DNA from: Corallium rubrum
Lineage: Eukaryota > Cnidaria > Anthozoa > Scleralcyonacea > Coralliidae
Length of the DNA stretch: 64,000 bases
NCBI GenBank assembly: GCA_964035015.1
Contig: OZ036010.1
Location: 8,642,173-8,706,172, forward strand
Reading direction: 5' to 3'
Part shown: in pieces, positions 34,802-54,859 of the stretch
Layout of the letters: each line of letters begins with the position of its first letter
Numbering within the stretch: position 1 is the first letter of the stretch
Translations under genes and position numbers: made by a program
Notes under the pieces: model-generated
What the model was told of the DNA's origin: nothing
Seen by the model: only the letters and a program-made list of their open reading frames with translations
Databases searched by the model: none

Positions 34802-36714
34802 CTAATACTCTGCAAGGTTCCGTACGAGAGGGTATCGTTTCTCGTTTTCTTTCCACCACATTAACGGATCTTCCGTCAAACCAATTGGTGCCTCGTTGCT
34901 GAGCTGCTGAATTTCCTTATCAATCCTTTGGTTCTTTTCCGCGCGAGATTCTACTTGGCAGGTGGATTCCCCAGAGCTATTTGACGATTTTCCTTTACCA
35001 AGCAACTCTTCCATGGCTACCTCTGATTTGGACTTCTTCTTTGGCGGTGGCAAGATCTCCGGTTCCGATGAACTGGTAGCAGCAACGTCGCTACTTGCAG
35101 GTAATGATGGCATGGCTTTCACGGTCTTTGACGCAAACTCCACTGATGCACTCCGCTCGGTTTCGCTCAGAAATGACAGATCACGAAACCTGGGATCCAT
35201 GAATGAAGTCAACAGATAAAATGGAACCATTTCGCAGGTGTCTGTTTCTTCACCGGTAACATCCAATTGGTCGAGAAAGAATCTGTCAGTCAACGACTGG
35301 ACGAGGGTATCCCTAAAATTCTGACCTGGCGGAGTGGTTGTCCGCCGTCGGCCATCGGTTACCGCACGCTCGAACGTCATGGCTTTCAATTGTTGAACTA
35401 AACCGGTAATAGCAGGCAGGACAACACCGGATGTTGTTTTGGACTGCGAGCTAAAAAGAACAGTAGCCAGCTCCACCTTCCTAAGAACTGGAACTATTTC
35501 CTCAGCAAGTTTCCAAGATTCGACGGGCATATCTAGGACCCTTGCTTCTTGTGGCTTGGTCAGAGATTGATCAGACAACACCGTAACGACTGGCCAACGC
35601 AACAGCGACAGACGCTCCAACATGTAAAATGTTGAGTTCCACCTGGTAGACACGTCCTGAATCAATCCCTTGCCATGATGTTCAGACGCCAGCATCTCTT
35701 TCACTTTAGCACGAAGACCATTTGTTGCCAGACTGGACATTTTAAAGTGCCCCACTAGCCTCCTGGCTGCAGCAACCATCTTTTCAAAGGGCTGGTCAAC
35801 CCCTTTCTTCATTGCATCTCCGATCGATAAATTTAGACTATGCGCCGCACAGCCGATATTGAAGGCTGTCGGTCTCTCTTTTGTGCCATTGATCATTTGG
35901 CCGGCGAGATTAACATTTGCAGCGTTATCATGAATACAGGCAAACACACGATCTTCAAGGCCAAATTCTTTCATCGTGTCGTTCACCTCAACAGCTAAAT
36001 TCACCCCGGTATGACGATCAAGGCTTGCTCTTGTCGCGAGGACTTTGCATGTCATTTCCCATTCACGAAGGAAGTGCACTACAAAAAATATTAAAATTAA
36101 ATAATTAATAAATAAGATATAAATTAGCAGAGCAAAAGTTACATGAAAACAGGTGTAGATTGAAAGTTACAACTTGGGAAGAAACTGTCAATTTAAATCT
36201 GTGACTTACCGGTAATTGTGAAGTAACTATCCTGAGCCATACTGGTCCAGCCGTCAGTTGTAATAGAGACGTCAGATATCAATCTTTCCAGTTCGCTCTT
36301 TAAAGCTTTTATGCCCGCAGTGTGTCGAAGCATGACCAGTTGACGGATCGTTTCTCGTTTTGGAATTTGATAGGTTGGCCATGCATGCTTAATGAGATCA
36401 CGGAACCCAGCATCTTTAACAATGCTAAATGGACGCAAATCTTTAACGCAGACGTTGGCAATATGCGCAGTGATCTCTTTTGCTTTGTCTCCTGATGGGT
36501 CAATCTTCTTTTGAAAAAAGCTCGTTATCGATGAACTGCCAGCGCTAGTTGATGCGGTTGGTTGGTAAACATTCGAGTGGCGTCTAATAAGGTGTTCTCG
36601 AAGATTTGTTGTATTGCCATGTCGGCGAATTGTTGCGTCGCAGTGTTTGCATTTCGCTGATGTTTGATTCTCGGCAACAAAATGGTCCCAGACGTCACTT
36701 CGGCTTTGAGACAT
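34802..36714 (-). CDS. hAT transposase with BED finger (C-terminus frameshifted)
   Basis: Exon 1 is 36714-36210, exon 2 is 36078-34802, joined in phase (GT-AG), about 593 residues. Residues ~6-50 form a BED zinc finger (SDVWDHFV, C-x2-C, LREHLIRRH). The RNase-H-like DDE core follows, with ITTDGWTSMAQDSY (first catalytic Asp) and RVFACIHDNAANV (second Asp); VSTRWNSTFYM is the conserved hAT phrase. A Lys/Ser-rich insert precedes PLMWWKENEKRYP. A premature stop after RNLAEY is due to one missing base near 34805: the next frame continues SVPSEQIFSKAGL and ends near 34689, the hAT dimerisation motif. The copy is therefore probably inactive but only just. Role in active copies: cut-and-paste transposition in the nucleus. 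Confidence 0.9.
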
Positions 36715-36756
36715 GTCGAAAAGACAGAAAACTGTGCGACAAAGCGCAAGTTGAAT

Positions 36757-37142
36757 GTGTCAGGTGTCATGTTTGAGCAATGAAACTGACACGTTTGGGC
36801 GGTTAAATATTAACAAACATGTTTTGCTCATGCACTTGAAAGGTTTTTAAGGTTTCCCGATTTTTTTCGCACGTTTGTAACTTGTAAGCAAGTATTATAC
36901 CTGTGGCATTACTGAATAAAGAATACAGTTGTATTTTAGAACTTGATTGAACGTAACACCAGCGAATTAAAATATAACTTTATTCTTTATTACTTAATAA
37001 CCTTATAACCTTGCTTACAATTACAAACGTGCGGGGGGGGGGGGAAACGGGAAACCTTTCAAGTGCATGAGCAAAACATGTTTGTTATTAATGTTTAACG
37101 CCCCCAAACGTGTCAATTTAATCGCTCAAACATGACACTTGG
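36757..37142. repeat. ~390-bp palindrome inside the hAT element
   Basis: GTCATGTTTGAGCAATGAAA... pairs with ...CGCTCAAACATGACAC, including inverse copies of TTTGCTCATGCACTTGAAAGG and the AACGTGC-containing centre. It is a MITE-like insertion or foldback between the transposase start and the right terminal repeat. Confidence 0.75.
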
Positions 37143-37456: not shown

Positions 37457-38143
37457 CATGTTTTTTCTTGCCGATGTCCGTTGTATTTTTTACCTGTACA
37501 TGTGGCTGCCGTCTTATCTTCTTTTAAATAGTTTTCTTTTTGTAAAACTACTTAATATGACTAAGTAGCGGTTGTTTATAATAAATTTAGCATAAAAAAT
37601 GGAAAAGGAACATTTTTTTAAAACGTACAAATGCTGTTGAAATATTTATTAAGGCCATTGGCATTAACATGTATGTGAAAACATTTTCAGCAATTCTGAT
37701 TTTGAAATGAAAAACTGTTTTTGTTATATTTGTTTAAATAAATTTAAAATATCATAAATGAATACCAACCAGGCAGTTTGAGTAGTTTTCAAAATGCAAA
37801 TATTTTTAGATACCAAGGGTCTTTGTAAACATGGAAAGAAAGAACTGTACAATATAACCCTAATGTTTTGATAAAATTTTGACGCCTGTTTCAGTAGTGT
37901 GGTGGTAACATCGTCGGCTTGCGGCGACATGCAAATTTTTTCATCTTAATATATTTTACGAAATATCATCCTTAAATTTTTCTTTGTTTTTTTGTTGCAT
38001 TTTTCTTTAAAAAAATAGAGTTTTTGTTTTTTATTTCAAATATTCTACCAGAATTAAAACTATATTTTCATTCCGACAGGAGTAGCTATTTCCAGGCCTC
38101 CAATAAAAAAAGAGCGCAAGGGGGGTTGCTGTAAAAGCAGGCA
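37457..38143. other. Spacer between two transposons
   Basis: AT-rich, no supported gene or repeat. It ends in AGCAGGCA directly before the next element. Confidence 0.5.
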
Positions 38144-40686
38144 GGTTGATGCGCCATATAGCAAGTCACCGGTGACGTCAAGAATAATTATAATAATTAG
38201 AAGGCACACATGCATCGTAGAATTATAATAGCGGAGGGCAACTAGGATTGGGTATCGGTAAATATGTATTTGTGGCATTGTGTCTTTGGGTCTCTAGGTG
38301 TCTCTGGGTTTTTAGGTCGATAGGTCTTTGGGACTCTAGGTCTCTAGGTCTTTGGGCCTCTAGGTCTCTGGGTTTTTAGGTCTTTGGGAATCTAGGTCTT
38401 TGGGTCTCTATGTCTCTGGGTTTTTGGGTCTTTGGGTTTCTAGGTTTTTGGGTCTCTGGGTCTATGGGTCTCTGGGTCTCTGGGTCTCTGGGTCTCTGGG
38501 TCTTTGGGTCTTTGGGTCTCTGGGTCTCTGGGTCTCTGGGTCTCTGGGTCTCTGGGTCTCTGGGTCTTTGGGTCTTTGGGTCTCTGGGTCTCTGGGTCTC
38601 TGGGTCTTTGAGTCTTTGGGACTCTGGGTCTCTGGGTCTTTGGGTCTTTGGGTCTCTGGGCCTTTGGGTCTCTGGGTCTTTGGATCTCTGGGTCAAATAT
38701 ATTTTTTTGGAAAAGCCCAGTTTCTTCAAAATTCTCTTTGTATTGTCAATTAGCAGACCAGAAATAAGGCACGCTTCAGTCAGTATATACCGTAGCCTAA
38801 GTGCAATGTCTTAATTTTTTATATTATTTAACACTTTGTTTCAATAGACTTGACAGACCATGCGAAGACTGCGTGGTAAAATCTCGTATTTTCGAGAACT
38901 TGAAAGTGCATTCAACCAATTAAGACGATTTATTTGACCCAAGTCGAACACGTGCATCCCCCATACATAATCCAATTCATGTAGAATTTAAAAATACGTT
39001 AATACGGCTTTTTTTTTGGGGGGGGGGGGGGGGGGGGGGGGGGGTGGTGGGGTGGGGGGGGGGGGTGTTTCCATAAAATTTCATTATAGCATGTTGCGTG
39101 CTCGATTTTTTCAAGTTCTTTTGCCTTTGATCGAGTTGGGTTGAGGTGTTTTCCGATAGTATTGGTGAATTAATGAGTAGTTTACCAGTAATGTTGCTGA
39201 CAAGGTTTGTCCGCGAAGACAGAATAGACGAATTTATTACAGACGCGAAAAAATGCGCGCCGTGTTGACATCAGTACCTATGAAGACACAAGAAAGAGCC
39301 ACAGTATATCAGAGTACATATACGTACTGTTTACCTAGTAACGGCTTTCTCCTTGTTTGAATAGCTTTACCTTTTGCAAGTGACAGAGTTATAGATGATA
39401 AGTAATGCGGCTGGCAATTGTCTTCGTCATAAACATTCTTACAAAGGCTTACATGTGTTTACAACGTACTGACGCCGGCGATCGCGATAGACCTAGTATG
39501 TAAAATATGACGAGCTATTTCAAAACAGGTTGGCCCTGGCCTTGCTACTTTATAGTCCAACAGCTCAGTACAAAATGCAAGTATAGTATTAAGCACCGAA
39601 TAGAGCAAACTCAATATGTTGAACTGCTCAGTGTATGCATGTCCAGATATCGCGTAGGTGTCGCGTGTCGTATTACATTTGGAAACGTGTGTTTCAAAAC
39701 ATGTTTAAATATTCTCTGTTTGTCCGAATTAAAATAAATTCTATATCAGAATGATCGCTTGAATCTGCCGAATCCGACACTATAGGTTTTGTTTACTGTC
39801 TAAATATATTAGATCAGTTGCTCATTTTTCAGAAAAACGGCCTTGTTGCATGTGCAGTAATACATGTACGATTAGCAAACTTTCGGCGCTTCCTGCACTG
39901 CTGCAGTTCATATAAGACCATATAGATTCTATTTGTCAAAATCTATGCAATTATGCATTGCCATGTAGTCTTGCCAGAGTACGCACAGGCTACGCCAAGC
40001 TTTCAGAAATCAGTAGCCCGAGTGAACGCGGGCCTGACCAGGCGTCTTGTTGAAACAACAACCATTTGCGTTTCATTTTGAATTTCAGTTATCTGACATT
40101 TCCAGAAGAAAAATAGCAAACTCGAGGTTCTCTTATGTACTCAACTGTAATTAACAACTTCTCTTGTTGCAATAATAATTGACGGACACGTAGAAGTATA
40201 TTATATTTACACCATTTTCACAATGGCGTTTCAGTCTTAAATTCTTAATCAGCCTTTCTTGCCCCGATTGTACTGTGTCTGCAATTCAAATAATCTTGCT
40301 TCGTAACGAGCCCAGAAAGACTCATGTGTAGATTGTAGATCATGTGTAGATATTGCAAATAAAAGAATATTTAACACTTGAAAATAACGCCTTTATGACA
40401 GTGTAGCCTGCTTTGTCACATTAAAATACTCATTAATACTAATTCATGACCAAAACACGAAAGAAATCAATACCGTAGCAGTGCATGGTTGTAAATCGGA
40501 TACAGCATCGTCCTGATTTACATCAACTTTCGCTTCGATTTTCTCGGCTAAAACGAGATGTATCCCCAAAATAGTTGATGAACTTGATTACTTTGATGCA
40601 TTTGCAGCTCGCCTTGTAAATCAGATAGAGCTCGGCTGCTCATGCTGTATCTATTACTTACAACGTGGGCTGGCCAGTAGAAATTA
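38144..40686 (+). repeat. Left terminal inverted repeat
   Basis: About 2.5 kb whose inverse complement is 51691-54082, highly similar with small indels. A 234-bp stretch at 40426-40659 is present only on this side. It includes a GGGTCTCT-type minisatellite (38281-38692), a G-homopolymer tract (39019-39066) and a decayed copy of the helicase 5' coding end (40102-40190). The open frames running through the minisatellite (repeats of LGLWVSGS) are repeat artefacts. Confidence 0.92.
38281..38692. repeat. 8-bp minisatellite (GGGTCTCT/GGGTCTTT)n, left arm
   Basis: About fifty tandem octamers with C/T variation. Since 8 is not a multiple of 3, every frame reads the same 8-residue peptide cycle, which explains the open frames on both strands. 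It is mirrored at about 53440-53935. Confidence 0.95.
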
Positions 40687-40901
40687 TTTTAAAGGATAAA
40701 AACAGTTACTGTTACTCAGAGTTTCACGCTCATTGGCGATCATCGGACTAAACGATTTGAGGCTACAGTATATACAATGTGCTTTATAGTAGTTGTTTGC
40801 CTACATGTTCATATAATCACATTTATATTAGGTAAAAAAAGAAAACTCTAACAATGCAATTTATATCAGTTAATATATTATGCAATTTATATAGTTATAT
40901 A

Positions 40902-43241
40902 TTAGTTAGCTTCGTCTGTGTCATCTGTAACGGGTTCCGCAACCTCCGCTGCAGTTACCAATGTTTGGTGAGGGAGGGTTGGATGCGAATTATCACTCGA
41001 CTGCGATGCTTGAGTAATATACTCATCAAATCCTTCTTGATTAGGGTGTTGTACCTCTGCTCGTAGTATCTGTTGGTCTGTAAGCCCATGATCAACTCTG
41101 TCAAATATCGTTGTATATTCTTCGACCGTTAATCCAAACTTCGCCAAATCATCAGAAACAACAGCAGTTGGAAGTACTTTAAAAAAGACGTCAGAACGAT
41201 CGACTTGAAGCCTGACGCCAAGACCCATGTCTTGCAGCTTATCCATCTCCTGTCTCACGGTATTGGTGTCTGGCCTTATCCGCGAGCTAAACTTGCGATA
41301 TACCAATTTTACCGTTACAAAAGGGCCGGGATGTCTCAGGATGGCTTCTTGGATCTCGTCTGGCTCCACATAGGTTTTTGCTTGGACCTCGCCAAGCGAA
41401 GCACACTACAGTACAGAAAAAATAGCCGAAATTATTTTTTTCCCCCGAAAATATATAGTTATGGTTATCACCACGTATTTCAGTATACGTACTGATAATA
41501 ATCTAAGTTTTTGACCAGTGTATACCGTACAATCGCTGATAAATCCAATTACACAAGAACTGATAAACCTGAGTAATGGTGTATACTGATATTACACTAG
41601 AGTTGATCACTGATAAATATATTTTTTACCTAAGTCATGCAACTCGGGCTACAATTAACTCCGAGAAGGGCCAAAAATATTTTTATGCCAATGGGCTATA
41701 AAAAAGAGTTAATAGCATAATTTTAGATATCGATATCGTTACCCAGTTTAATTTACACAGCAGTTATCTAGTGTAATATCGTAATTTTAGAGGGCTACGC
41801 CTATACGAGTTTTTTAGTGTTCCACTATCTATAGATATCGATCGTTTTCATCTGACGTCACGGCGGCCATATTGGTGTACCGAAACAATGAAATGGCGGC
41901 CATATTGGTGTACCATCTTTATCCTATGAGAATTTAACTCTAATTCTTATTCAAAAATTTCGTATTGTTTCACCACCCCAATGGGGCCACCGATCACGTG
42001 AGTAAAACGATCCATATTGCCAAGCTCTATTATAAAATTTTCAGTTCAATTTAATTCAATTCTTTGGTTAAGACAATGAATCTAAAATTTGTTTAGTACC
42101 TAGCCTGATACATACGCAATGTAACTATGAAACAAACATATTTACGAAAATTTCACGTTACCTGTCTGAGAATTGCTCTCTGTTTTTCAAAGTATCCGGC
42201 CAGGGCAATGGCTGCAGACATGGTTCGGGCAGATATTCTTCCCGGAAGATCCTCTGCGCTTTGGTTTAGGGCTTGGTATATCATGGTGAATAGAACGTGG
42301 ATTACTGCTGCCAGCCTAACGATATTTTTGTCGTCTTTTGCATTACCAACGCCGCCGTCTTCTTGTGGAGATGAGTTCTCGTCATTTGTATGCTTCACGT
42401 ACATGTCAAGAGCTTCTTCTTCCAGGGAATACTTTGTTTGTTCGCCGGTGTTATGTTTCGCAAATATTTTCTCATACAACTTATCAAACGAGGCGAGACG
42501 AGTATCTTTGAGTCTTCTGCTGCATTCCATTCTATTGTTGATGGGCACATGCGTTGTTGGTGGCAGACATATGAGGAACCTGTCGAGAAGTCCATTGCTA
42601 TCAGTCACCAATCTAGGCATTATGGAGCGCAAAAAGGGCTCTGGTTGAGTGAAGCAAGACAATGCCATGGCTGCTGAAGGAACTCCGACTCTTTTGTTAG
42701 TGTTACCTTTCGTCTCGTACCAATGAGAGCCATCGTAACATTGAAGCAGTCGTTTCATTGACGGCGCCAAGGCACTACTTTTGGTACCAACCACAGCCTT
42801 AAACCATTCTTGGCATTCGTCGATGGCGCACAACGCAACTCGATTTGCACTTCTGGTGAAGAATCGGAATAGACCTTTTGAGGTGGCGTCTTCCAGAAGC
42901 ATTTCCTCTCCAACTTTTCCTTCAAGATGGTGCAAAATAGGCTGGGTAACACAGTTTTTGTGGCTTTGGGTTTTTCCAGTTGAGGGACCACCAAGAGCAA
43001 GCATGTAAAGATTAACTCTTTCTTCGTACCCGTCAAAAATTTCTACCACAGCATTTCCCATGAGAGCGCTGACTGCAGGAAAAGAGCTGGCCAGAAGAAA
43101 TTCTTTACACGTACCCTTTGCATTGGAGAACGTTGTCATCCATCCTTCCACTTCATCCTTGGCAATATCTTTCCAAGGAAGATAGCAAGCTCGAGCTTCT
43201 CTTATAATCGAGTCAACTGTAACGACTTCTCTTGTTGCCAT
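40902..43241 (-). CDS. DUF3987-like AAA+ (primase-helicase-like) ATPase of the large transposon
   Basis: Exon 1 is 43241-42162 and exon 2 is 41405-40902 (stop), GT-AG and in phase, 527 residues with no interruptions. Walker A is LGGPSTGKTQSHK (~residue 84), Walker B LCAIDECQEWF (~140), a sensor-like SCFTQPEPFL (~190) and an arginine-finger-like SNGLLDRFLICLPP (~210). This is the arrangement of DUF3987/D5-like helicases seen in phages, plasmids and some eukaryotic mobile elements. The C-terminal exon carries LVYRKFSSRIRPDT and VRQEMDKLQDMGLG, compatible with a winged helix, then an acidic tail. A TATA box (CTATAAAA) sits about 50 bp before the ATG. Probable role: DNA unwinding or replication of the element. 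Helicase class: good; exact family: inference. Confidence 0.8.
41850..41915. promoter_or_regulatory. CRE and duplicated YY1-like motif in the helicase intron
   Basis: TGACGTCA (palindromic CRE) is followed by GGCGGCCATATTGGTGTACC, which recurs 33 bp downstream (41862-41881 and 41895-41914). GCGGCCATATTG resembles a YY1 site (CAATATGGCCGC on the other strand). It could be a regulatory cassette or merely a repeat scrap. Confidence 0.3.
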
Positions 43242-43287
43242 AATGAAAGACGAACACGAAATAAATTCAAACGGGAGGTGCGGTTTG

Positions 43288-43295
43288 TTTTATAG
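43288..43295 (-). promoter_or_regulatory. TATA box of the helicase gene
   Basis: CTATAAAA on the minus strand, 47-54 bp upstream of the ATG at 43241, implying a very short 5' untranslated leader. Confidence 0.5.
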
Positions 43296-43868
43296 GTTCG
43301 AGATTAGAGAATGCAATTATAGGACAGGTTTATTTCAATAAACGTAAAATGACATTTCTTAATAAAACCTTAGGGTACAATCTATATTTGCCCACTCATG
43401 TTAATTAATACTGTCGGATGTTACTAAACACGTTGATCTATATACAAACTGAAAGATCGGAACTTGAAAGGGAACTATTTAGAATCACATGCACTGCAAT
43501 CACATTTTTATTACACTGCCAAACGTAACGATATATTTAATCTGAATGAATGTACCCTCAATATACGCGCGAAAACATATGGACAACAGCTAACCGCTCT
43601 TTTAAAGAAATATATACAAACGGAGTAAAGACATCTTTTAGGAAGTAAAATAATATAGTTACAACAAGACAGAGACATAAATAGTAATATACCTACATTT
43701 ACACTAATATAACTGAGAAACGTTCTATGATAAGTTGTAACTATATATACATGTATAGTGCATGTGGTACGTTTGCGAGCTTGGTGACGTGTAATGCATG
43801 TAACAGACGTTTGTCGTTTGGTGGACGTTCGTCACTGAGCTCAATTATATTACTCAGAAAATATTTCT

Positions 43869-43925
43869 GAGCCCCAGACAGGTATCGAACCTGCAACCTT
43901 CTAATAACCGATTGGCAACCCTTAA
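43869..43925 (-). repeat. tRNA-derived SINE fragment
   Basis: On the minus strand AGAAGGTTGCAGGTTCGATA and CCTGTCTGGGGCTC look like the T-arm (B box GGTTCGATACC) and acceptor end of a tRNA-derived SINE. The A-box half is degenerate, so this is not a working tRNA gene. Confidence 0.45.
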
Positions 43926-43995
43926 AAGCTTAAACGATCAACAGCGTAACTAAGTAATTTAATGTAATAATGTAGGTGTATTGCTATGTTGTCGT

Positions 43996-44857
43996 AGCGT
44001 GCGTGTAACCGCCCATGGGGGGAAATATCAGAGTTTATTTCCCTAACGCCACGTCACTAAATGGAGGAAGGGCGGCTACACACTGGCTACAAATTCGTAA
44101 CTACCGGTATGCCGCAATTGGGTGTGTCCACTGGGGTGTGTCCTTTTAACAGTTTTACATCTTCATCAGCATCGCAGAAGTTTCCTTTTCAGTCCATCCG
44201 ACGCCACGCCTGAAAACAAATCGACACTGAAACATGCACTCTAAAAATTTTGACGTTTGATCGTTTAGCTCTTGGCCATATGTTCAAAAATAGTTAAGAA
44301 TAGTTTTATATAATGATGTTCTCTCATTTCTTATTCTTGCTATCTGGTTCTCTTATTTATAAACTATTGTGATTCAATACAAATGCTTCGGTTGGCTTCG
44401 CTACATTATAACTGACTGACATTTGTACTGCAGTGTAAAAGGGAATAAGTACAATTTATAATAACCGAATAAAAAACAAAGTTATGCAACTTCGTCTTAT
44501 AGTTCTTCTTCTTTTTTTATTTAATATATGCCTTATATATGCTCATATCTCATGAGTTCTATTTAGTTCGTATAGATAAATATGATACTCGCTTAATGCG
44601 GCAATTATATATGTTTCCTTTTTTGTAAGGTGAATGAACAATCTAATTCTTCAGTGTTCTTTATATATTTCCGTATCTACTGAAATTAGATTGGTGCCCT
44701 GAAGGCCATATAGAAAAATAACCTTGTATAAATTGACACCGGGGAAATTTTACCCTCAAATTTGGCTCTAGTGTAAAAAAAGTTAGCTAGTTAAATGCAT
44801 GGGAATATAAATGCTTCATGGGTCACAAAAGTTTGTTATCGTTTATATATACTATGC
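43996..44857 (+). repeat. Inner inverted repeat, left copy
   Basis: The inverse complement matches 50663-51298, with indels (for example the AGTCCATCCGACGCCACGCC segment near 44192 and its inverse near 51160). A 120-bp piece of it is repeated directly at 45413-45540. It brackets the transposase gene, and its outer edge abuts the helicase promoter region. Confidence 0.8.
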
Positions 44858-45081
44858 GAAATCGTTTATATATACTATATACTTGCTTCATGACGAGAAC
44901 AGAAAGACTCATTTCAGATTTCTGAGATGTATAGTTAAACGAAGCGTCACAGGCACATTATATAACGTAGGTTATAGTCAGTAGAAATTGTATAGTCAAA
45001 CAGAAAATTTCCTTCGCTTTGAAAAGTCAGTTAATTACTTACATAAAGAAACCTCGGGGTATAGATTAGAATTTATAACAC

Positions 45082-45300
45082 TTGCCCACCTGTCGTCAGT
45101 ATGTCCCAAAAAAGACGTTAATATTTATCTATAATTCAATAATTCAGTCTTACCTCGATTACTATGATTTAGTATGGCACAGTGGTCTGAATCAAGATCA
45201 AACTGATCGACTACAAAAATTACATAACAGAGCAGCACGTGTAATTACCCAGGCTGAATATGAAATACGATCGTCTGATCTGTTAACTTGGCTGGGATAA
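45082..45300 (+). pseudogene. LINE reverse transcriptase C-terminal scrap
   Basis: The frame reads FIYNSIIQSYLDYYDLVWHS and LQKLHNRAARVITQ, the conserved segment after the RT palm in non-LTR retrotransposons (typically ...Y..LVW... LQ..QNRA.R.I). It continues after a stop with degenerate LINE-like text to about 45410. It is a dead fragment nested in the large transposon. Confidence 0.75.
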
Positions 45301-45808
45301 TTTACACTCTCGCCGAATAATCAATTCAGCCACAGTGATGCATAAAATATTTTATTGCAATACTTCTAATTACCTCAATAAATGTCATAAAATGAATGTT
45401 ATATAAATAAAGTTTCCTTTTCAGTCCATCCGACGCCACGCCTGAAAACAAACCGACATTGAAACATGCACTCTAAAATTTTCTACGTTTGATCTTTGAA
45501 CTCTTGGCAATATGTTCAATAATACTTGAAAATAATGTTATTTAATTAAATATCGCGCGCTTCAAAAAGCTAGCAATAACCCAGTAATAACAATGGCCGG
45601 GAAGTATATATTAACAACATATAAAACCATTTTGTTGGGTTTTTTTATCTGATCACGATGCCCTCAGCCGATAGGCGGCCAAACATGAGCCTGCTCGCAG
45701 GCTAACCAAACATATAGTCACTGTGACAAAATGAATTCGCACTCATATTCTGATTTCCGTCTGCTTGTTTGACATGCGTTACTGCTCTATTTACTGTGAA
45801 CAGTTGTT

Positions 45809-48800
45809 TTGTATAGTCGCTATTTTTTCGCAATGTTCAACGACAAGCCAATTTTGATATTTAAATGTATCATTTTTATATCAATAATTTCTGTCTGTGT
45901 CTCTCAAGGCATCCCTCCTTCTTGGGTAAATTACATTAAAAGTGCCATTGAAGCGTTTGAAAATTCTGGTAAACGTACATATCAATATGGGTCAAGTGAA
46001 AATATCGCGAGTTCGATAGTGTCGCTTTCTAATCAAGATCAAATCAGCCATGCAGATACTGTGTATACTCCTTCAATAATGTTGTGGAATCCGCTGATAC
46101 AATTCAGTGCTTATTCAGCTATTGAATGCCCGATTTGTCGAGGACAGTTAAAGGTATGGAGATGGAAAGATGGTTCTTCAGCAAGAGAAACTCCAAGGTC
46201 ACTTATTTGCCTACAAAAGAAGGTCTACCTTGTTTCGTGTGTGTATTTATGCGAACAAAATCAACACGAGATTGTCGGACACGACCCTGCAATTATTACA
46301 ACATTGCAAAACACGTTTCCTTTTCTGCACATTCCCTTCATTCTATTCCACAAGTCTGGCGTAACGAGAGAACTATATGACTTCATTTCTTCAAGTATCC
46401 AAAGTGGCCTATCGTTGATAGATATTGAAAGCATTATTACACAGCAACACAGCGCACGTCATTATCGCGATGCTTGTGAATATACAGCTTATAAAAAATT
46501 AAATAACATTGTTAATCTACAAGAGTTTCCAGCTTTTGATCCAGCGAAAGAGTACATAAGTAGGAAGCTCATTTTCCGGGTATTTTTGAAGAGTTTTGTA
46601 GAAGTGGAGCACATGTACACGGAACATATGGCGTCAAAGAGAGGGAAATGGATTTCAGCCGATCATACGTTCAAGGTAAAATTATATATAACATGCAGTA
46701 TGCATGAATCATTATTGTTCCCATTCGCTTTTTATATACACAGCAATATACACAACTTGAATAGGGAATTGAAGACATATTTCACCAAAAGTTTTAATAT
46801 TTTACTTTTTATCTTTTTCGTTATAATGTGTAATGGAAAATTCATTTGAGTAACGTTTTCGAGACTAAAAAATAGAGAAATATATACACATTAACGAATA
46901 CCCAAAAATAAAAGTGTTATAAACACAAGCCGCTATGCGAGTCGAGCCACATGTGTTTAGATCACAGTATCCTACCCATAAAACAATTTTGTATTCAACA
47001 AATAAATTTCCAAGCAGCCAGGTAAAAAATCAGACGTAGTTCAACGCTTCTCTGGCTTAAAAAAGCAACAAACTTTTAAGCCATAGTATAGCGTTAAACA
47101 ATATGTCGGAATTTGGTATTTATTTTAAAAATGCATGAAATTTGCAATTTTCTCGAACTTCATTTGTTCAACTCTCACGTGGGGGGTGAGGCAAGCTCAT
47201 TTGAACTTTCGTATATATGGTATAAATATTATTTAATAAACACATGCAGGTACTGCATGCTCTTGTTACCAGATTTTATTAGTAAAGTACTACTATGATA
47301 GCCGGTTTTATTGTTAATTCTCATATATGTTTTGGTACGTTACAGGTGACGGCAAACATTGGTTATTGGAAACACGGGATGTGGAATAAACTGTACGACT
47401 CCCTTTTTATCGCAATGAGCGAGAACAGTGACATATTGGCATGGCAATTAACAAAGGGTACATCTATAGACAATGTTGAAATTTTGCTTCGTTGGTATAA
47501 ATAATAGACTAACCAATCACGGTGAAGGTTTCGAAGGTATTGTATTGGACAACTGCTGTTCTGTGAAAAATAAATTTAAAAATATTTTTGGTGATGACGT
47601 TGTAATAAAATTAGACATATTCCATGCAATTCAGAGAATTATTGTACAAATACCAAAACGTCAATCGAACGCAGCAATGCAAAGGACACGAAGAATCATG
47701 ATTAAAGAACTGCGACTTTGCTTTCGTAAAAATAGTGACATTGGCCATATTCGTAAAGAGAAAACTCCAAGCCCGGAAGAGCTTGAAAATAACTTTCACA
47801 GATTTCTAAAAAGATGGGAAACTGAAGTAATTGATGATATCAACGTTCTTCCTCCAACAGCGGTCAACGAAGTTTACAATTTACTACACCATGTAAGATC
47901 AAGCTGTCTTTCTGATATCCCCCCAGGTGTTGGAACAAACAGGAACGAACGTCTTCACCGAAAAATGCGAAAGTGGATAAATAAAAATCGGATTGGCGTA
48001 AGCTACGCAGTTGCAGTTTTATTTCTAATGTTTTATGTTCACATGGAAAGAAAGGAGAAGCTGAAGCGTGGTGCAAAAGGAGGACAGAAGCATGTTATTG
48101 CACCTGTCACTAGATGGTATCAAGAATTTTTGGAGAAAGGAGATCAAAGGACATCAGAAAAATTTGGCATTGGGGTCAACGTACGGGATTTACCTAGTGA
48201 TGTATCTGCGGGTTCTGAAGACTCGCACGGCCATATATCACCAGATATTTACAAAGAAACAGATAGCACCAATAGTTCCGAAGAGTCTGATTCAGACGCC
48301 GAAAGTAGATCAACTGCCACTGTGTCAGCAGAAACTGCAAATAACCTTGTCGGTAGAGCTAGAGTTATGGAAAATGTTACAAAGAACATATTCAAGAACA
48401 CAAGTGCTCCTATGATATCGGACAAAACATTGTGGCTAGATTACCCAGCTTCTTTGTTGCTTTTCTCATATCCAGAGAGTAATATTCAGTGTGACTACGA
48501 CAAAGCAGTAGAAAGAGTAAAGAGTATGGTTGAAAACTACGGTTTTAAACTGATCGATATCGCTGGAGATGGAGACTGCTGTTTTAACTCAGTGGGGCAC
48601 GGATTAGAGAGTTTCTTTCAGGTAGAATCTTCTCCAATAGTTAGACATTTGACGTCAGTGGGAATTTTTAAAGGCCAGGATGAAGTGGATCGAATAATGC
48701 GTTTGCGGGAACTTGTTGTTGCGGAGTGGCTTGGTGAATTTAGCAGCGAGTATTCGATGTTTCTCACTGTTGCTGATCAATCGTCTTTTCACGATATGGC

Positions 48801-49602
48801 TCAACGCTTCATTCAAAGAGGCGTATTTGACTGCGAACTCGGAAACAGCGTGCTTATGGCTCTAGCAAACATTTTGAAGTGCCCAATAGTAGTCTTCACT
48901 TCAATTGATACTTATCCTATCATACCACTGATTCCCAGAGAAAGCCCGTTATCTGTAATTCCGATTTATGTTGCATTCAACCAAACTGGAAAGGGTCATT
49001 ATAACGCCCTCTGCAGCGTACCCGAAGAAGCACTCGCAATTAAAGAGACCGATGTCGAAAATGAAGTCATGCTTTCTAAAAAGTCATCATGTAGGTGTGG
49101 TCAAGGACGCGCAAAAGTAAAAGTGAAAAGCTTCTGCATAGATTATGGTTCAAGATGCAAGTGCTTTCAGCAAATGCAAGGATGCAATAATAATTGTGGA
49201 TGCAGGAATTGCGGTAACCCGCATGGAGAAAAAAAGGCTAACCCCACTCCAACACAAAGCAGGAAGCGGAGAAAACACGACACAACGCCAAAAACATCAA
49301 GCGAATTCGTGGACAACCATGGGGAGCAGCTTCCTCATGGCAAGTGGAGCGATTTTGAACGCTTCATTTTGCAACAAATTGTGCAAAACCGTGTGGCATT
49401 CGGAGAGCAAGAACCTGACTATGATAAAATATGTCAGGAATTTCTTTCTGTGATGACTCATAGTGGGAACACAAGCACAACCACGACTCAAACAACACCA
49501 AGAATCAAAGCGATGGCCAAGAATATTTTAAGCCAAAGAAACCTAACTCTTACATTGTTACAACGCGAGATGGAGAATAGTTTGTTGAATCAGAATAAAT
49601 GA
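45809..49602 (+). CDS. Zinc/DDE-transposase-OTU-CXC protein of the large transposon (one frameshift)
   Basis: Exon 1 (45809-46675) and exon 2 (47346-49602) join in phase, about 1,040 residues if the extra A near 47499 is ignored; the copy as read is broken there. Exon 1: ECPICRGQL and YLVSCVYLC (zinc site), then FHKSGVTRELYDFI, typical of DUF6729-like transposase N-termini. Catalytic candidates: ADHTFK (D), IVLDNCC and IKLDIFHAIQR (D), TNRNERLHR (E). OTU protease: GDGDCCFNSVGHG (Asp/Cys) and GKGHYNALC (His) at 48565-49010, apparently intact. CXC zinc domain: CRCGQGRAK to CGCRNCGNPHG (49093-49227). The N-terminus is hydrophobic, so the real start may be later or in another exon. Inferred role: transposase, with the OTU possibly removing ubiquitin from host or self proteins. 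Confidence 0.8.
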
Positions 49603-50662
49603 TGCGATTATATATAGAAATCCTATGAATGTTTTAAAATATAGCATTGTAACCAACTATATTACTACTCCAAATCAATAATTACAAGGAAAATTATTAT
49701 AAATGATATTCTGACATATTATTGTCATATTATTAGTGATTGAGAAGCAGTATATATGTTCATCATGCTTCCTTGTGTTCGAATCGATTAAGATTAAATA
49801 CTTTTTACGAAAAAACGCCATAAGATATTCAGGTCAGTTAATCCTGTACATGTGTTGCGATAGAATAATCAATATGATAATAAATATTTACTTTTTGTTT
49901 GTGCTCTTACTAGCATCAACAGTTGGTACCTTTTGGTCATATAAAAAGTTATTATTAAGTTACACATTACAGTGAACAAGAATGCATGCATGTGTACGAA
50001 AAAAAAATCGTTCAAACCTCCACGCACTCGTTTCCGTATCAGCTGTATATTCAATCGTCAAAGTTTTGTTAGCCTGCACTAGCCTGCACCACAGTGCGAT
50101 CAAAACGGTGTTCTATAACGGATTATTCTTAAAAATTAATAATTCATATAGAAAACACAACGGGAATCAGTTACAGCGCGCGTCGTTGGTAAGTCTTGAA
50201 ATAAAGCAAATAAATCAACACAGCTAAATCTCAGACAGTATAAACAGCTTCTGGTTCATGATATATAGTACATGAACTCCAACAGGTACCTATTTACTCT
50301 TGACGGTTATATACATTATTTACTATAGTCTATATAATAGTAAATAATTTGACGTCTCTGTATAATATGCATGACGGACGCGTATATATATATATTATAT
50401 ATATATATATATTCTTGTCTTGACCATTCGAATAGTATAGTCATATGCAAAGCAAAAAGTACAGCAGAAATAAAAAAAAACACGCATGTTATAGACTTGT
50501 AATCAGATTATAATAGCACCACGCCTTTAATTTAGAAATACAAGATGGTGTATTCTTGGCTTTTTAAATGTGTTAACTGATATGTCGCTTATTTTTATGC
50601 ACTGTACCATTGTAGATACACCGTTCCATCTGGTACGGCACCGAATAAATACAATGCATATA
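49603..50662. other. 3' flank of the transposase gene
   Basis: AT-rich with a short TA run at 50383-50413. Probably the 3' untranslated and spacer part of the element. No gene supported. Confidence 0.5.
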
Positions 50663-51298
50663 ATAGTGTATATATAAACGATAACAAACTTTTGTGACCC
50701 ATGCATGAAGCATTCAGTATATCCATTTAATTATAACGAGAGAAGGTTAACATAATGAGCCTTATTTTAACTAGCAAACTGTTTTTTTAAAACAAAATTT
50801 GAGGTAAAATTTCCCCGGTGCCAAAACCAATTTACAAGGTTATTTTTCTATATGGCCTTCAGGGCAACAATCTAATTTAAGTAGATCCAGAAACATGAAG
50901 AACACTGAAGAATTAAATACAATTTTACACTGTAGCACAAATGTCAGTCAGTTATAATGTAGCGAAGCCAACCGAAGCATTTCTATTGAATCACAATAGT
51001 TTATAAATAAGAGAACCAGATAGCAAGAATACGAGATGCGAGAACATCATATTGTATATAAAATTATTTTAAACTATTTTTGAACATATGGACAAGAGTC
51101 CAATGATCAAATGTCAGAACGTTTTAGAGTGCATGTTTCAATGTCGGTTTGCTTTCAGGCGTGGCGTCGGATGGACTGAAAAGGAAACTTCTGCGATGCT
51201 GACAAACGGAAGTAAAACTATTGAAAGGACACACCCAAACTGCGGCATAGTCACGAATTTGTGGCCTTCCCCCAAGGGCGGCCACACGCACGCTTAAC
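50663..51298 (-). repeat. Inner inverted repeat, right copy
   Basis: Inverse partner of 43996-44857. It shares, for example, the TATGGCCTTCAGGGCA and GTAGCGAAGCCAACCGAAGC segments in reverse. Confidence 0.8.
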
Positions 51299-51690
51299 GG
51301 TCGAATTTGCTGTAAAACATGCAGTGCCATATAGTGTGTTTATATATATCTTAAAATGTAAAATAATACATATATCATAACTTTACAAGTTCAGTCGTAG
51401 TTTGGTTCTCAAGTAGAGCGGTTAAGTAAGGTGACGTAAGAGAAAGAAACTCTGATTTTTCATAAAGTTTTGGGAAACATGTTTTAGAAGCTACTCATAA
51501 CTAAGTCACCCTGAAAACCTAGACCAATTTAGACACCTTTTACAATAATGATCGTCATAACATTTGCAGATGTAGTAATGGAGTTTTTCGAGAAAAGTTT
51601 TAAGTCAATATATATATATACATATATACATACATATCGTATTAATGGAGTTCACAGCCGGGATAAGAAAACCGCTCTTTTCGACTACAA

Positions 51691-54082
51691 TTTCTACTGC
51701 CTACTGGCCAGCCCACGTTGTAACATGTGTCTGCATGTGACAAAGCAGGCTACACTGTCATATTGTCATAAAGGCGTTATTTCAAGTGTTAAATATTCTT
51801 TTATTTACAATATCTACACATGATCTACAATCTACACATGAGTCTTTCTGGGCTCGTTACGAAGCAAGATTATTTGAATTGCAGACACAGTACAATCGGG
51901 GTAAGAAAGGCTGATTAAGAATTTAAGACTGAAACGCCATTGTGAAAATGGTGTAAATATAATATACTTCTACGTGTCCGTCAATTTTTATTGCAACAAG
52001 AGAAGTTGTTACAGTTGAGTACATAAGAGAACCTCGAGTTTGCTATTTTTCTTCTGGAAATGCCAGATAACTGAAATTCAAAATGAAACGCAAATGGTTG
52101 TTGTTTCAACAAGACGCCTGGTCAGGCCCGCGTTCACTCGGGCTACTGATTTCTGAAAGCTTGGCGTAGCCTGTGCGTACTCTAGCAAGACTACATGGCA
52201 ATGCATAATTGCATAGATTTTGACAAATAGAATCTATATGGTCTTATATGAACTGCAGCAGTGCAGGAAGCGCCGAAAGTTTGCTAATCGTACATGTATT
52301 ACTGCACATGCAACAAGGTCGTTTTTCTGAAAAATAAGCAACTGATCTAATATATTTAGACAGTAGAAAAAACCTATAGTGTCGGATTCGGCAGATTCAA
52401 GCGATCATTCTGATATAGAATTTATTTAAATTCGGACAAACAGAGAATATTTAAACATGTTTTGAAACACGTTTCCAAATGTAATACGACACGCGACACC
52501 TACGCGATATCTGGACATGCATACACTGAGCAGTTCAACATATTGAGTTTGCTCTATTCGGTGCTTAATACTATACTTGCATTTTGTACTGAGCTGTTGG
52601 ACTATAAAGCAGCAAGGCCAGGGCCAACCTGTTTTGAAATAGCTCGTCATATTTTACATACTAGGTCTATCGCGATCGCCGGCGTCAGTACGTTGTAAAC
52701 ACATGTAAGCCTTTGTAAGAATGTTTATGACGAAGACAATTGCCAGCCGCATTACTTATCATCTATAACTCTGTCACTTGCAAAAGGTAAAGCTATTCAA
52801 ACAAGGAGAAAGCCGTTACTAGGTTAACAGTACGTATATGTACTGTGATATACTGTGGCTCTTTCTTGTGTCTTCATAGGTACTGATGTCAACACGGCGC
52901 GCATTTTCTCGCGTCTGTAATAAATTCGTCTATTCTGTCTTCGCGGACAAACCTTGTCAGCAACAGTACTGGTAAACTACTCATTAATTCACCAATACTA
53001 TCGGAAAACACCTCAACCCAACTCAATCAAAGGCAAAAGAACTTGAAAAAATCGAGCACGCAACATGATGCTATAATGAAATTTTATGGAAACACCCCCC
53101 CACCCCCCACCCCCCCCAAAAAAGCCGTATTAACGTATTTTTAAATTCTACATGAATTGGATTATGTATGGGGGATGCACGTGTTCGACTTGGGTCAAAT
53201 AAATCGTCTTAATTGGTTGAATGCACTTTCAAGTTCTCGAAAATACGAGATTTTACCACGCAGTCTTCGCATGGTCTGTCAAGTCTATTGAAACAAAGTG
53301 TTAAATAATATAAAAAATTAAGACATTGCACTTAGGCTACGGTATATACTGACTGAAGCGTGCCTTATTTCTGGTCTGCTAATTGACAATACAAAGAGAA
53401 TTTTGAAGAAACTGGGCTTTTCCAAAAAAATATATTTGACCCAGAGATCCAAAGACCCAGAGACCCAAAGGCCCAAAGGCCCAGAGACCCAGAGACCCAA
53501 AGATCCAAAGACCCAGAGACCCAGAGACCCAGAGACCCAGAGACCCAGAGACCCAGAGACCCAGAGACCCAGAGACCCAGAGACCCAGAGACCCAGAGAC
53601 CCAGAGACCCAGAGACCCAGAGACCCAGAGACCCAGAGACCCAGAGACCCAGAGACCCAGAGACCCAAAGACCCAAAGACCCAGAGACCCAAAGACCCAG
53701 AGACCCAAAGACCCAGAGACCTATAGACCCAGAGACCCTAAAACCTAGAAACCCAAAGACCCAAAAACCCAGAGACATAGAGACCCAAAGACCTAGAGAC
53801 CTAGAGTCCCAAAGACCTAAAAACCCAGAGACCTAGAGACCCAAAGACCTAGAGACCTAGAGTCCCAAAGACCTATCGACCTAAAAACCCAGAGACCTAG
53901 AGACCCAAAGACACAGACCCAAAGACACAATGCCACAAATACATATTTACCGATACCCAATCCTTGTTGCCCTCCGCTATTATAATTCTACGACTATATA
54001 ACGAACGTATGCTGCATGTGTGCTTCTAATTATTATAATTATTCTTGACGTCACCGGTGACTTGCTATATGGCGCATCAACC
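51691..54082 (-). repeat. Right terminal inverted repeat
   Basis: About 2.4 kb, inverse of 38144-40686. It contains the C-tract (53093-53118) opposite the left G-tract, the minisatellite (about 53440-53935), and at 51973-52059 a decayed helicase start whose plus strand reads ATREVVTV followed by degenerate text. Confidence 0.92.
53440..53935. repeat. 8-bp minisatellite, right arm
   Basis: Tandem AGAGACCC/AAAGACCC octamers, the mirror of the left-arm array but longer. Copy number differs between the arms, as expected for slippage after the arms became paired. Confidence 0.95.
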
Positions 54083-54090
54083 AGCAGGCG

Positions 54091-54859
54091 AGGGGTTATT
54101 GCATTTATGTATTTCTAGTTTAATTAACTTGACTGAGGGTGTTTGGGTGGGGGGTGTTTCAAAAAAGCATGCAAAAGTGGGCGAGGGGTTGTTGCATTTA
54201 TGTATTCCTAGTTAGTCTTTTATGAAGCGTGAAAATGTCCTATAATTATCCTCTCTTTGAACACTAAATACAGTAATAATCCAAATATATTACAGTGTTC
54301 AATCATACGGGTACAACTGCAATTTGGCACAATCTATTTGTCTAAGTATTACTGGTGATAAGAAAATCTTAGGCATACCTCTTGAGTCTCATTAACTTCA
54401 CTACTCTGACTGGTGCTGGCATCCATTTTCCCTCTTTTATGTCTCCTTGACGAGTAAAAGAAAAAAAAAGAACCACATTGATTACAAAAAGTTCTGGTAT
54501 AAAAGGAGCATGGCCAGGCGGCCCTTCGATTTTTCATCAACCATCAGTATTACTTCATTGCTTCTCCAAGGTTTTTCAAAACACAAGTATACACTGTAAA
54601 TCTTTACACGGTTCTCATTATTTGCCATTAACGAAACAGTTCTTGGAAGAACTCTTCAGTTAAGTTAAGTTCAGTTCACAACAGTTCCAGTAAGAAACTA
54701 AAACTATTCAGTATCAAAGATATCACCATTTCACCATGGTTTAAAACGAATCGGTTTATAGTAAAACTCGAAATTAATACTGCACTTACGGTTTGTAATC
54801 GGCCATTTACAACGCCATAGAGTGGTTTGGTAAAATCTTGACTTGAGCCAGACCCATAC
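54091..54859. other. Flank right of the large element
   Basis: GCGAGGGGTTATTGCATTTA recurs, slightly changed, at about 54181 (GCGAGGGGTTGTTGCATTTA), a short direct repeat. No gene supported. Confidence 0.4.

What the first reader, a model, noticed from the sequence alone, without database searches (positions are those of the whole stretch)
38144..54082. Giant DNA transposon pairing a DUF3987-like helicase with a DDE-OTU-CXC protein between kilobase inverted repeats
Seen: exact inverse ends (GGTTGATGCGCC...), an 8-bp flanking repeat AGCAGGC[A/G], 2.4-2.5 kb arms, two divergent intron-containing genes. Known: DDE transposases, OTU proteases and DUF3987 AAA+ helicases are each found in mobile DNA. 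Inference: the combination of helicase, ubiquitin protease and transposase with very long terminal repeats may define an undescribed superfamily or a replicative, virus-like lifestyle. KDZ/Zisupton and Academ are the nearest comparisons I can name, and neither clearly fits.
Basis: partly seen in the sequence, partly recalled or inferred. Interest (0 to 1): 0.93.

Follow-up and report, generated by a model that had tools for sequence, protein, structure and literature searches.

The report
Giant jumping gene with helicase partner
This is a real, recently mobile 16-kb jumping gene in an animal-like genome that carries its own cut-and-paste enzyme together with a helicase-like protein otherwise known from phages and bacterial mobile elements, and the same two-gene pairing recurs in distantly related elements of the same genome.

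Summary
38144-54082 is a 15.9-kb DNA transposon with 2.3-kb inverted arms and an 8-bp target-site duplication. Of 12 places examined in the window's own 474-Mb genome, 7 had both ends (5 with perfect 8-bp duplications) and 4 carry both genes. The joined flanks match unoccupied sites at up to 113/113 bases. Gene 1 is a DDE-OTU-CXC transposase whose catalytic fold is closest to ISCth4 (IS256/Mutator type). Gene 2 is an AAA+ DUF3987 protein, a predicted replication helicase of bacterial mobile elements. The pairing is not a one-off nest: 35 of 59 DUF3987 loci lie within 30 kb of a DDE-OTU locus (0.4 expected under uniform placement; at most 15 in 2000 within-contig shuffles). Two further families read from DNA, with DUF3987 only 32-33% identical, share it and related termini. 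So DUF3987 looks like a conserved second core gene of a diverse, apparently undescribed group of Mutator-related transposons. "New superfamily" is partly supported; a virus-like life cycle is not. What DUF3987 does is inferred. 24 of 59 DUF3987 loci are unpaired, and linkage in other species was not shown.

The parts
38136..38143 (.). left target-site duplication AGCAGGCA
   Evidence: single AGCAGGCG in unoccupied sites
38144..40421 (+). left terminal inverted repeat; end GGTTGATGCGCCATATAGCAAGTCACCGGTGACGTCA
38278..38694 (.). subterminal minisatellite, 8-bp unit (GGGTCTCT-like)
40099..40190 (-). decayed fragment of a DUF3987 gene start inside the left arm (77% to 43170-43258)
40902..41405 (-). 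exon 2 of the DUF3987 gene (167 aa C-terminal part)
   Evidence: related frame in family 3
42162..43241 (-). exon 1 of the DUF3987 gene: AAA+ ATPase with Walker A GGPSTGKT and Walker B CAIDE
   Evidence: Pfam DUF3987 9e-26; PHROG DNA helicase 7e-17; conserved GKT and DE
44134..44852 (+). inner inverted repeat, left arm (continues the outer arm; the DUF3987 module lies between)
45833..46675 (+). exon 1 of the DDE-OTU-CXC transposase; first catalytic Asp in ADHTFK (46658)
47346..49602 (+). exon 2: VLDNCC (47542), KLDIFHA (47608), NRNERLH (47938), OTU GDGDCCF (48565) and GHYNAL (48994), CXC from 49090; one frame break near 47490 in this copy only among the four
50668..51236 (-). inner inverted repeat, right arm
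   Evidence: kept in three gene-less copies
51735..54082 (-). right terminal inverted repeat
51973..52060 (+). decayed DUF3987 gene-start fragment inside the right arm (79%)
53438..53917 (.). subterminal minisatellite in the right arm
54083..54090 (.). right target-site duplication AGCAGGCG

Best explanation
The element belongs to a diverse group of Mutator/IS256-related DNA transposons whose core is two genes: a DDE-OTU-CXC transposase and a DUF3987 AAA+ ATPase. Shown: defined ends, 8-bp target duplication, several copies with the same ends and genes, unoccupied sites, and recurrence of the pair in at least three sequence-diverged families with related termini. Inferred: the transposase binds the ends (the shared GGTTNATG tip and a nearby GACGTCA), cuts with its D-D-E triad and inserts with an 8-bp stagger; CXC helps bind DNA; OTU strips ubiquitin from the transposase or from host repair or silencing factors. 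My most likely role for DUF3987 (about 0.5) is an ATP-driven helicase that unwinds strand-transfer or gap intermediates so that the kilobase-armed element is copied or repaired; an AAA+ transposase helper or target selector (MuB/TnsC/IstB style, about 0.3) is the main alternative. Short gene-less copies with the same ends are probably moved in trans.
Against: 24 of 59 DUF3987 loci and 20 of 55 DDE loci have no partner within 30 kb, and the 35 pairs include several copies of the same family, so they are not 35 independent events. At C1:70.2 Mb the flanks were read 7 kb to each side and hold no DDE-OTU match. No linkage in another species could be shown: none of the longest-contig lengths coincide (my comparison by eye). 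The DUF3987 structure model was too poor to use (mean pLDDT 37). Pfam MULE and Transposase_mut are hit by only 1 of 27 homologues each, E 0.039 and 0.084. Drosophila P element transposase is the next transposase in the fold list (E 7.5e-3). Gene order varies among pairs (15 convergent, 14 divergent, 6 same strand, counted). DUF3987 is damaged in two of the four family-1 copies.
Confidence: 0.85

Rival explanations
1. Nested elements: a DDE-OTU-CXC transposon (inner repeats 44134-44852 / 50668-51236) sits inside an unrelated DUF3987 element, and the pair travels only because of one old nesting event.
For: The inner inverted repeats frame the transposase gene, and the DUF3987 module interrupts the left arm.
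Against: The alignment shows no sharp inner end or target duplication. The inner repeat is more diverged (83-91% in its matched pieces) than the outer one. Three gene-less copies keep the inner right repeat joined to the outer arms. The pairing recurs in families with 32-33% identical DUF3987, different gene order and their own ends.
Confidence: 0.07
2. DUF3987 is not a helicase here but an AAA+ partner of the transposase that selects targets or remodels the transpososome, as MuB, TnsC or IstB do.
For: A DDE transposase plus AAA+ ATPase is a recurrent bacterial design (recalled). The protein keeps GKT and DE. The two primase families matched at E below 1e-7 align only from position 341 of 750 and 378 of 788, that is beyond the N-terminal part (a third, phrog_14296, 417 long, matches from position 18 at E 0.027). 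No polymerase or primase gene was seen in the element.
Against: The nearest profiles are DUF3987 and phage DNA helicase/primase families; no TnsC, MuB or IstB family was reported.
Confidence: 0.3
3. DUF3987 is passenger cargo captured once, Pack-MULE style, without a role in transposition.
For: Mutator-like elements capture genes (PMC6431247 and PMC6446971, passages). The DUF3987 module sits within an arm.
Against: Recurrence beside DDE-OTU genes in 35 loci of diverged families; motif conservation; a related second-exon frame in family 3.
Confidence: 0.1
4. Assembly artefact or chance inverted repeat.
For: Long arms and minisatellites are hard to assemble.
Against: Separate loci with distinct perfect TSDs; unoccupied sites.
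Confidence: 0.01

Closest known systems
Mutator-like elements (MULEs) and prokaryotic IS256
   Same: DDE RNase-H fold with a long helical insertion before the Glu (best transposase match ISCth4; that ISCth4 is IS256-family is recalled), 8-bp TSD, kilobase TIRs, gene-less derivatives. PMC6446971 (passages read) gives 8-11 bp TSDs and long TIRs.
   Different: OTU and CXC on the transposase protein; a DUF3987 AAA+ second gene. The main text of PMC6446971 has 0 occurrences of OTU and helicase. Pfam MULE is not reached at cut-off.
Rehavkus
   Same: Mutator-related animal transposons with a minisatellite beside a TIR (PMC6446971, passages).
   Different: 9-bp TSD, PHD finger, one ORF according to that paper; here 8-bp TSD, CXC and OTU, two genes.
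KDZ / Zisupton
   Same: 8-bp TSD for Zisupton (PMC12730594, passages).
   Different: No KDZ family among the 25 of 32 Pfam families shown for 27 homologues; the fold search points to IS256. No direct KDZ comparison was made.
Tm1 Mutator/Foldback elements of nematodes
   Same: Composite TIRs with tandem repeats in a Mutator-type family (PMC3169594, abstract and passages).
   Different: Mostly 9-bp TSD; no helicase gene mentioned in the passages seen.
DUF3987 helicases of phages and bacterial mobile elements
   Same: Same Pfam domain; predicted replication helicases (PMC5862659, passages).
   Different: There fused to primases in bacteria and archaea; here without a recognised primase, with an intron, beside a eukaryotic DDE transposase.
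Helentrons and Ginger transposons
   Same: Helentrons carry OTU-like proteases (PMC6431247, passage). For Ginger the listing of PMC2836005 shows 17 occurrences of OTU; that some Ginger elements carry the domain is recalled.
   Different: Helentrons use a rolling-circle Rep plus helicase (same passage); Ginger uses a Gypsy-integrase-like DDE enzyme (abstract start).

Membership tests
Mutator/MULE-IS256 | DDE RNase-H transposase of IS256/MULE fold | tested here: met
Mutator/MULE-IS256 | sequence profile match (Pfam MULE or Transposase_mut) | tested here: inconclusive
   1 of 27 homologues each, E 0.039 and 0.084 (MULE 14.8 bits against cut-off 27.6); therefore called related, not formally filed as a MULE
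Mutator/MULE-IS256 | 8-11 bp target-site duplication | tested here: met
   8 bp; perfect in 5 of 7 family-1 elements and in the one family-3 element; imperfect in the one family-2 copy checked
Mutator/MULE-IS256 | long terminal inverted repeats | tested here: met
   2.3 kb in family 1, about 270 bp in family 3
Rehavkus | 9-bp TSD and PHD finger | tested here: not met
   8-bp TSD; no PHD family in the window's own Pfam scan or among the families shown; CXC instead
Rehavkus | minisatellite beside the terminal repeat | tested here: met
   tandem repeats near the ends of family 2 too
KDZ/Zisupton | 8-bp TSD | tested here: met
   Zisupton TSD length from PMC12730594
KDZ/Zisupton | KDZ transposase similarity | tested here: inconclusive
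   none among the 25 of 32 families shown for 27 homologues; no direct KDZ comparison
Academ | 3-4 bp TSD (recalled) | tested here: not met
   8-bp TSD
Maverick/Polinton or virus | polymerase, integrase or capsid genes between the TIRs | tested here: not met
   the long window frames show none; the Maverick-like insert in another copy is a separate nested element
DUF3987 (PF13148) | profile match above the curated cut-off | tested here: met
   91.3 bits against cut-off 27
Replication helicase | unwinding activity | not testable with these tools
   only Walker motifs and profiles seen

The most novel reading that the evidence does not exclude
A distinct eukaryotic transposon superfamily in which a Mutator-fold DDE-OTU-CXC transposase works with its own dedicated AAA+ motor taken from the bacterial/phage replication repertoire, moving by a replicative or AAA+-guided route (a eukaryotic counterpart of Mu or Tn7 logic) rather than by simple cut-and-paste.
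Probability: 0.35. Interest if true: 0.92.

Novelty: new variant of a known kind. Interest (0 to 1): 0.77.

Why it matters
Animal cut-and-paste transposons are usually thought to need only a transposase. A conserved second gene of phage/bacterial helicase type, kept with the transposase across diverged families and gene orders, would mean that some eukaryotic transposons bring their own DNA-remodelling motor, and would give a testable route from prokaryotic replication genes into animal mobile DNA. It would also give a home to eukaryotic DUF3987 and OTU-CXC proteins now annotated as hypothetical.

Tried and rejected
Chance or artefact repeats: rejected by separate TSDs and unoccupied sites. 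One-off nesting of the two genes: rejected by recurrence. Virus-like element: no relatives confirmed in viral contigs (3, 23 and 24 stretches matched a pattern, none was confirmed); the 4 matches at E 0.001 or better in the viral fold library are two OTU-type proteins, one iridovirus 'virion core protein' and one unnamed entry. Prokaryotic contigs: no relatives of either protein confirmed (72 and 19 pattern matches). DUF3987 structure: model too poor, so no fold search was made with it; PDB sequence searches gave 0 matches. Cross-species linkage by equal contig lengths in the protein database: none (compared by eye; both lists came from about 8000 scored candidates). Programmed frameshift for the frame break near 47490: rejected, because the other three two-gene copies lack it. 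Structural aligner: most rows are OTU matches, so absence of other transposase families there is no evidence.

Literature: searches are the only searches with the term DUF3987 (10 papers in all; from titles and abstract starts they concern bacteria, archaea or phages; I read passages of 2, PMC5862659 and PMC10803314). One search (MULE, OTU domain, transposase) found 0 papers. Searches looked for neighbouring families; nothing with this gene set was seen in the listings or passages. The library lacks most subscription journals, and Repbase and Dfam were not available, so absence from print is not proven.

Weaknesses: locus counts rest on capped candidate lists (one search scored 63 of 190 candidates; one search scored 40 of 41, and many of its 129 matches are overlapping minisatellite hits). 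I copied the match tables into the script. Contig lengths in its shuffle control were known for 7 contigs and otherwise approximated (C37 set by hand, the rest from the largest coordinate seen). Same-strand matches less than 6 kb apart were merged. DUF3987 exon 1 of family 3 was seen only as a match; its DNA was not fetched. Host identity is not established.
Full report
Observation. The element at 38144-54082 (15,939 bp) has inverse ends and 2.3-kb arms, 98.7% identical over ungapped columns, and is flanked by AGCAGGCA/AGCAGGCG. Each arm carries a minisatellite of 8-bp units and a 77-79% decayed copy of the start of the DUF3987 gene. Between the arms lie two divergent, two-exon genes: DUF3987 (minus) and DDE-OTU-CXC (plus). 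A second, more diverged inverted repeat (83-91% in its matched pieces) frames the transposase gene.

Copies in the same genome. The window lies in an unnamed 474-Mb assembly. A 301-base end query gave 129 matches, many of them overlapping minisatellite hits. I examined 12 places (the window and 11 fetched). Both ends were found in 7 of 12: TSDs ACTTGTCT, CTTAAACT, CCCAAAGA, GTCAATTC and CACCCCAG are perfect (5 of 7), the window is 7/8 and C15 6/8. The other 5 showed one end only within the stretch read. The chance of a perfect 8-bp match at a given pair is about 2e-5. Four of 12 carry both genes in the same order (window, C1:72.4 Mb, C1:77.5 Mb, C8:29.06 Mb); in 8 of 12 neither gene was found in the stretch read. 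Three gene-less copies (5.7, 6.9 and 13.1 kb) keep parts of the arms plus the inner right repeat and share one internal deletion junction, so they are deletion derivatives, probably moved in trans. The C8 copy differs from the window by 3 substitutions in 3766 aligned bases over the transposase gene and has both genes uninterrupted, but its right end was not found in the 20 kb read. The window copy has one frame break near 47490; DUF3987 is damaged in C1:77.5 Mb (a stop) and C1:72.4 Mb (frame change in exon 2).

Empty site. Joining the two flanks with one target copy gives a 113-base sequence found elsewhere at full length and 100% identity; 40 of the 45 listed matches span the junction at 96-100% identity. 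The element thus inserted into one copy of a dispersed repeat, and the pre-insertion site had AGCAGGCG once.

The DUF3987 protein. Pfam DUF3987, E 9e-26; phage DNA helicase and primase families, the two better primase matches lying beyond the N-terminal part of those profiles. GKT of Walker A and DE of Walker B are invariant in 9 aligned proteins including a 32% identical one. PMC5862659 (passages) predicts that DUF3987 domains are helicases of mobile-element replication. The AlphaFold model was unusable.

The pair is conserved. Whole-genome searches gave 69 DUF3987 and 76 DDE-OTU matches. The only loci reaching 98-100% identity are the four two-gene copies. Merged into 59 and 55 loci, 35 of 59 DUF3987 loci have a DDE-OTU locus within 30 kb, 31 within 10 kb and 22 within 5 kb; uniform chance expects 0.42. 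A within-contig shuffle, harsh on small contigs, gives mean 7.9 and maximum 15 in 2000 runs; on contigs taken as over 2 Mb it is 22 of 38 against mean 1.4 and maximum 6. Several pairs are copies of one family, so these are not 35 independent events. Gene orders are 15 convergent, 14 divergent and 6 same strand. I read the flanks of four further DUF3987 loci: three had a DDE-OTU gene (C13:1.96 Mb, C8:12.99 Mb, C1:87.9 Mb) and one had none within 7 kb (C1:70.2 Mb). Family 3 (C1:87.9 Mb, about 8.3 kb) has inverse ends GGTTAATGCGCCATATACCAAGTCACGAGCGACGTCA and a perfect TSD TTCCCACC; family 2 ends in GGTTCATGACCAGTGTAAGAGACACAGCTGACGTCA with an imperfect duplication in the copy checked (AAACTTTG/AAACTTGT); the window ends in GGTTGATGCGCCATATAGCAAGTCACCGGTGACGTCA. 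The GGTTNATG tip and GACGTCA are shared by all three. Family 3 also has a relative of the window's DUF3987 exon 2 (30% over 111 residues). DUF3987 identities to the window are 33% (family 2) and 32% (family 3), so the pairing is old.

How the unusual anatomy arose. In the three two-gene copies besides the window, the left arm continues inward with sequence matching the right arm (about 80%), then is interrupted by the DUF3987 module, then resumes as the inner repeat. So the long arms once ran further in, and DUF3987 now lies inside one arm in this family. In families 2 and 3 the two genes are convergent. I infer rearrangement between the arms; this is not shown.

Mechanism. Shown: precise insertion with 8-bp duplication, recent copies, deletion derivatives, conserved catalytic residues. 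Inferred: transposase cleavage and strand transfer at the ends; OTU as deubiquitinase protecting the machinery; CXC as DNA-binding aid; DUF3987 as ATP-driven helper. I favour a helicase acting on strand-transfer or gap-repair intermediates (0.5), then a MuB/TnsC/IstB-like regulator (0.3). No primase or polymerase gene was seen, so autonomous replication is unlikely.

Known or new. PMC6446971 (passages) summarises Mutator-like groups and Rehavkus; its main text has 0 hits for OTU and helicase. PMC13359780 has 0 for OTU, helicase and DUF3987. PMC6431247 on giant transposons has one OTU passage, on Helentrons. (term DUF3987, 10 papers) list bacterial, archaeal and phage work. Repbase and Dfam could not be checked. 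I rate it a new variant of a known kind, possibly a new superfamily.

Limits. Host species unnamed; introns and the nearest named relatives (anthozoans) suggest an anthozoan-like animal, not established. Linkage of the two genes in other species was not shown. 24 of 59 DUF3987 and 20 of 55 DDE loci are unpaired; whether these are broken copies is untested except at C1:70.2 Mb.

Noticed in passing
L016-L018 (copy at C1:77.5 Mb): An 18.6-kb Maverick/Polinton-like element (judged by eye from its open frames) with about 945-bp inverted repeats is nested in this copy between the two genes; described only.
   Followed up: partly
L013 (copy at C1:72.4 Mb): About 2.4 kb of the left arm is present three times in tandem; this copy is 23.3 kb long.
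   Followed up: no
L009, L010, L011-L012: Three gene-less copies share the same internal deletion junction, so a non-autonomous subfamily has spread.
   Followed up: partly
window 38080-38143 and 54083-54213: The target is a dispersed repeat (40 long matches listed), with a second partial unit at 54170-54213.
   Followed up: partly
window 34802-36759 (minus): Two long open frames look by eye like a BED-finger/hAT-type transposase; not scanned.
   Followed up: no
G000 contig C82: This contig holds five DUF3987/DDE-OTU pairs within 30 kb, an unusual concentration.
   Followed up: no
L041-L042 (C1:70.2 Mb): A DUF3987 frame (34% to the window) lies between Gypsy-like and LINE-like frames (judged by eye) with no DDE-OTU match within 7 kb.
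   Followed up: partly
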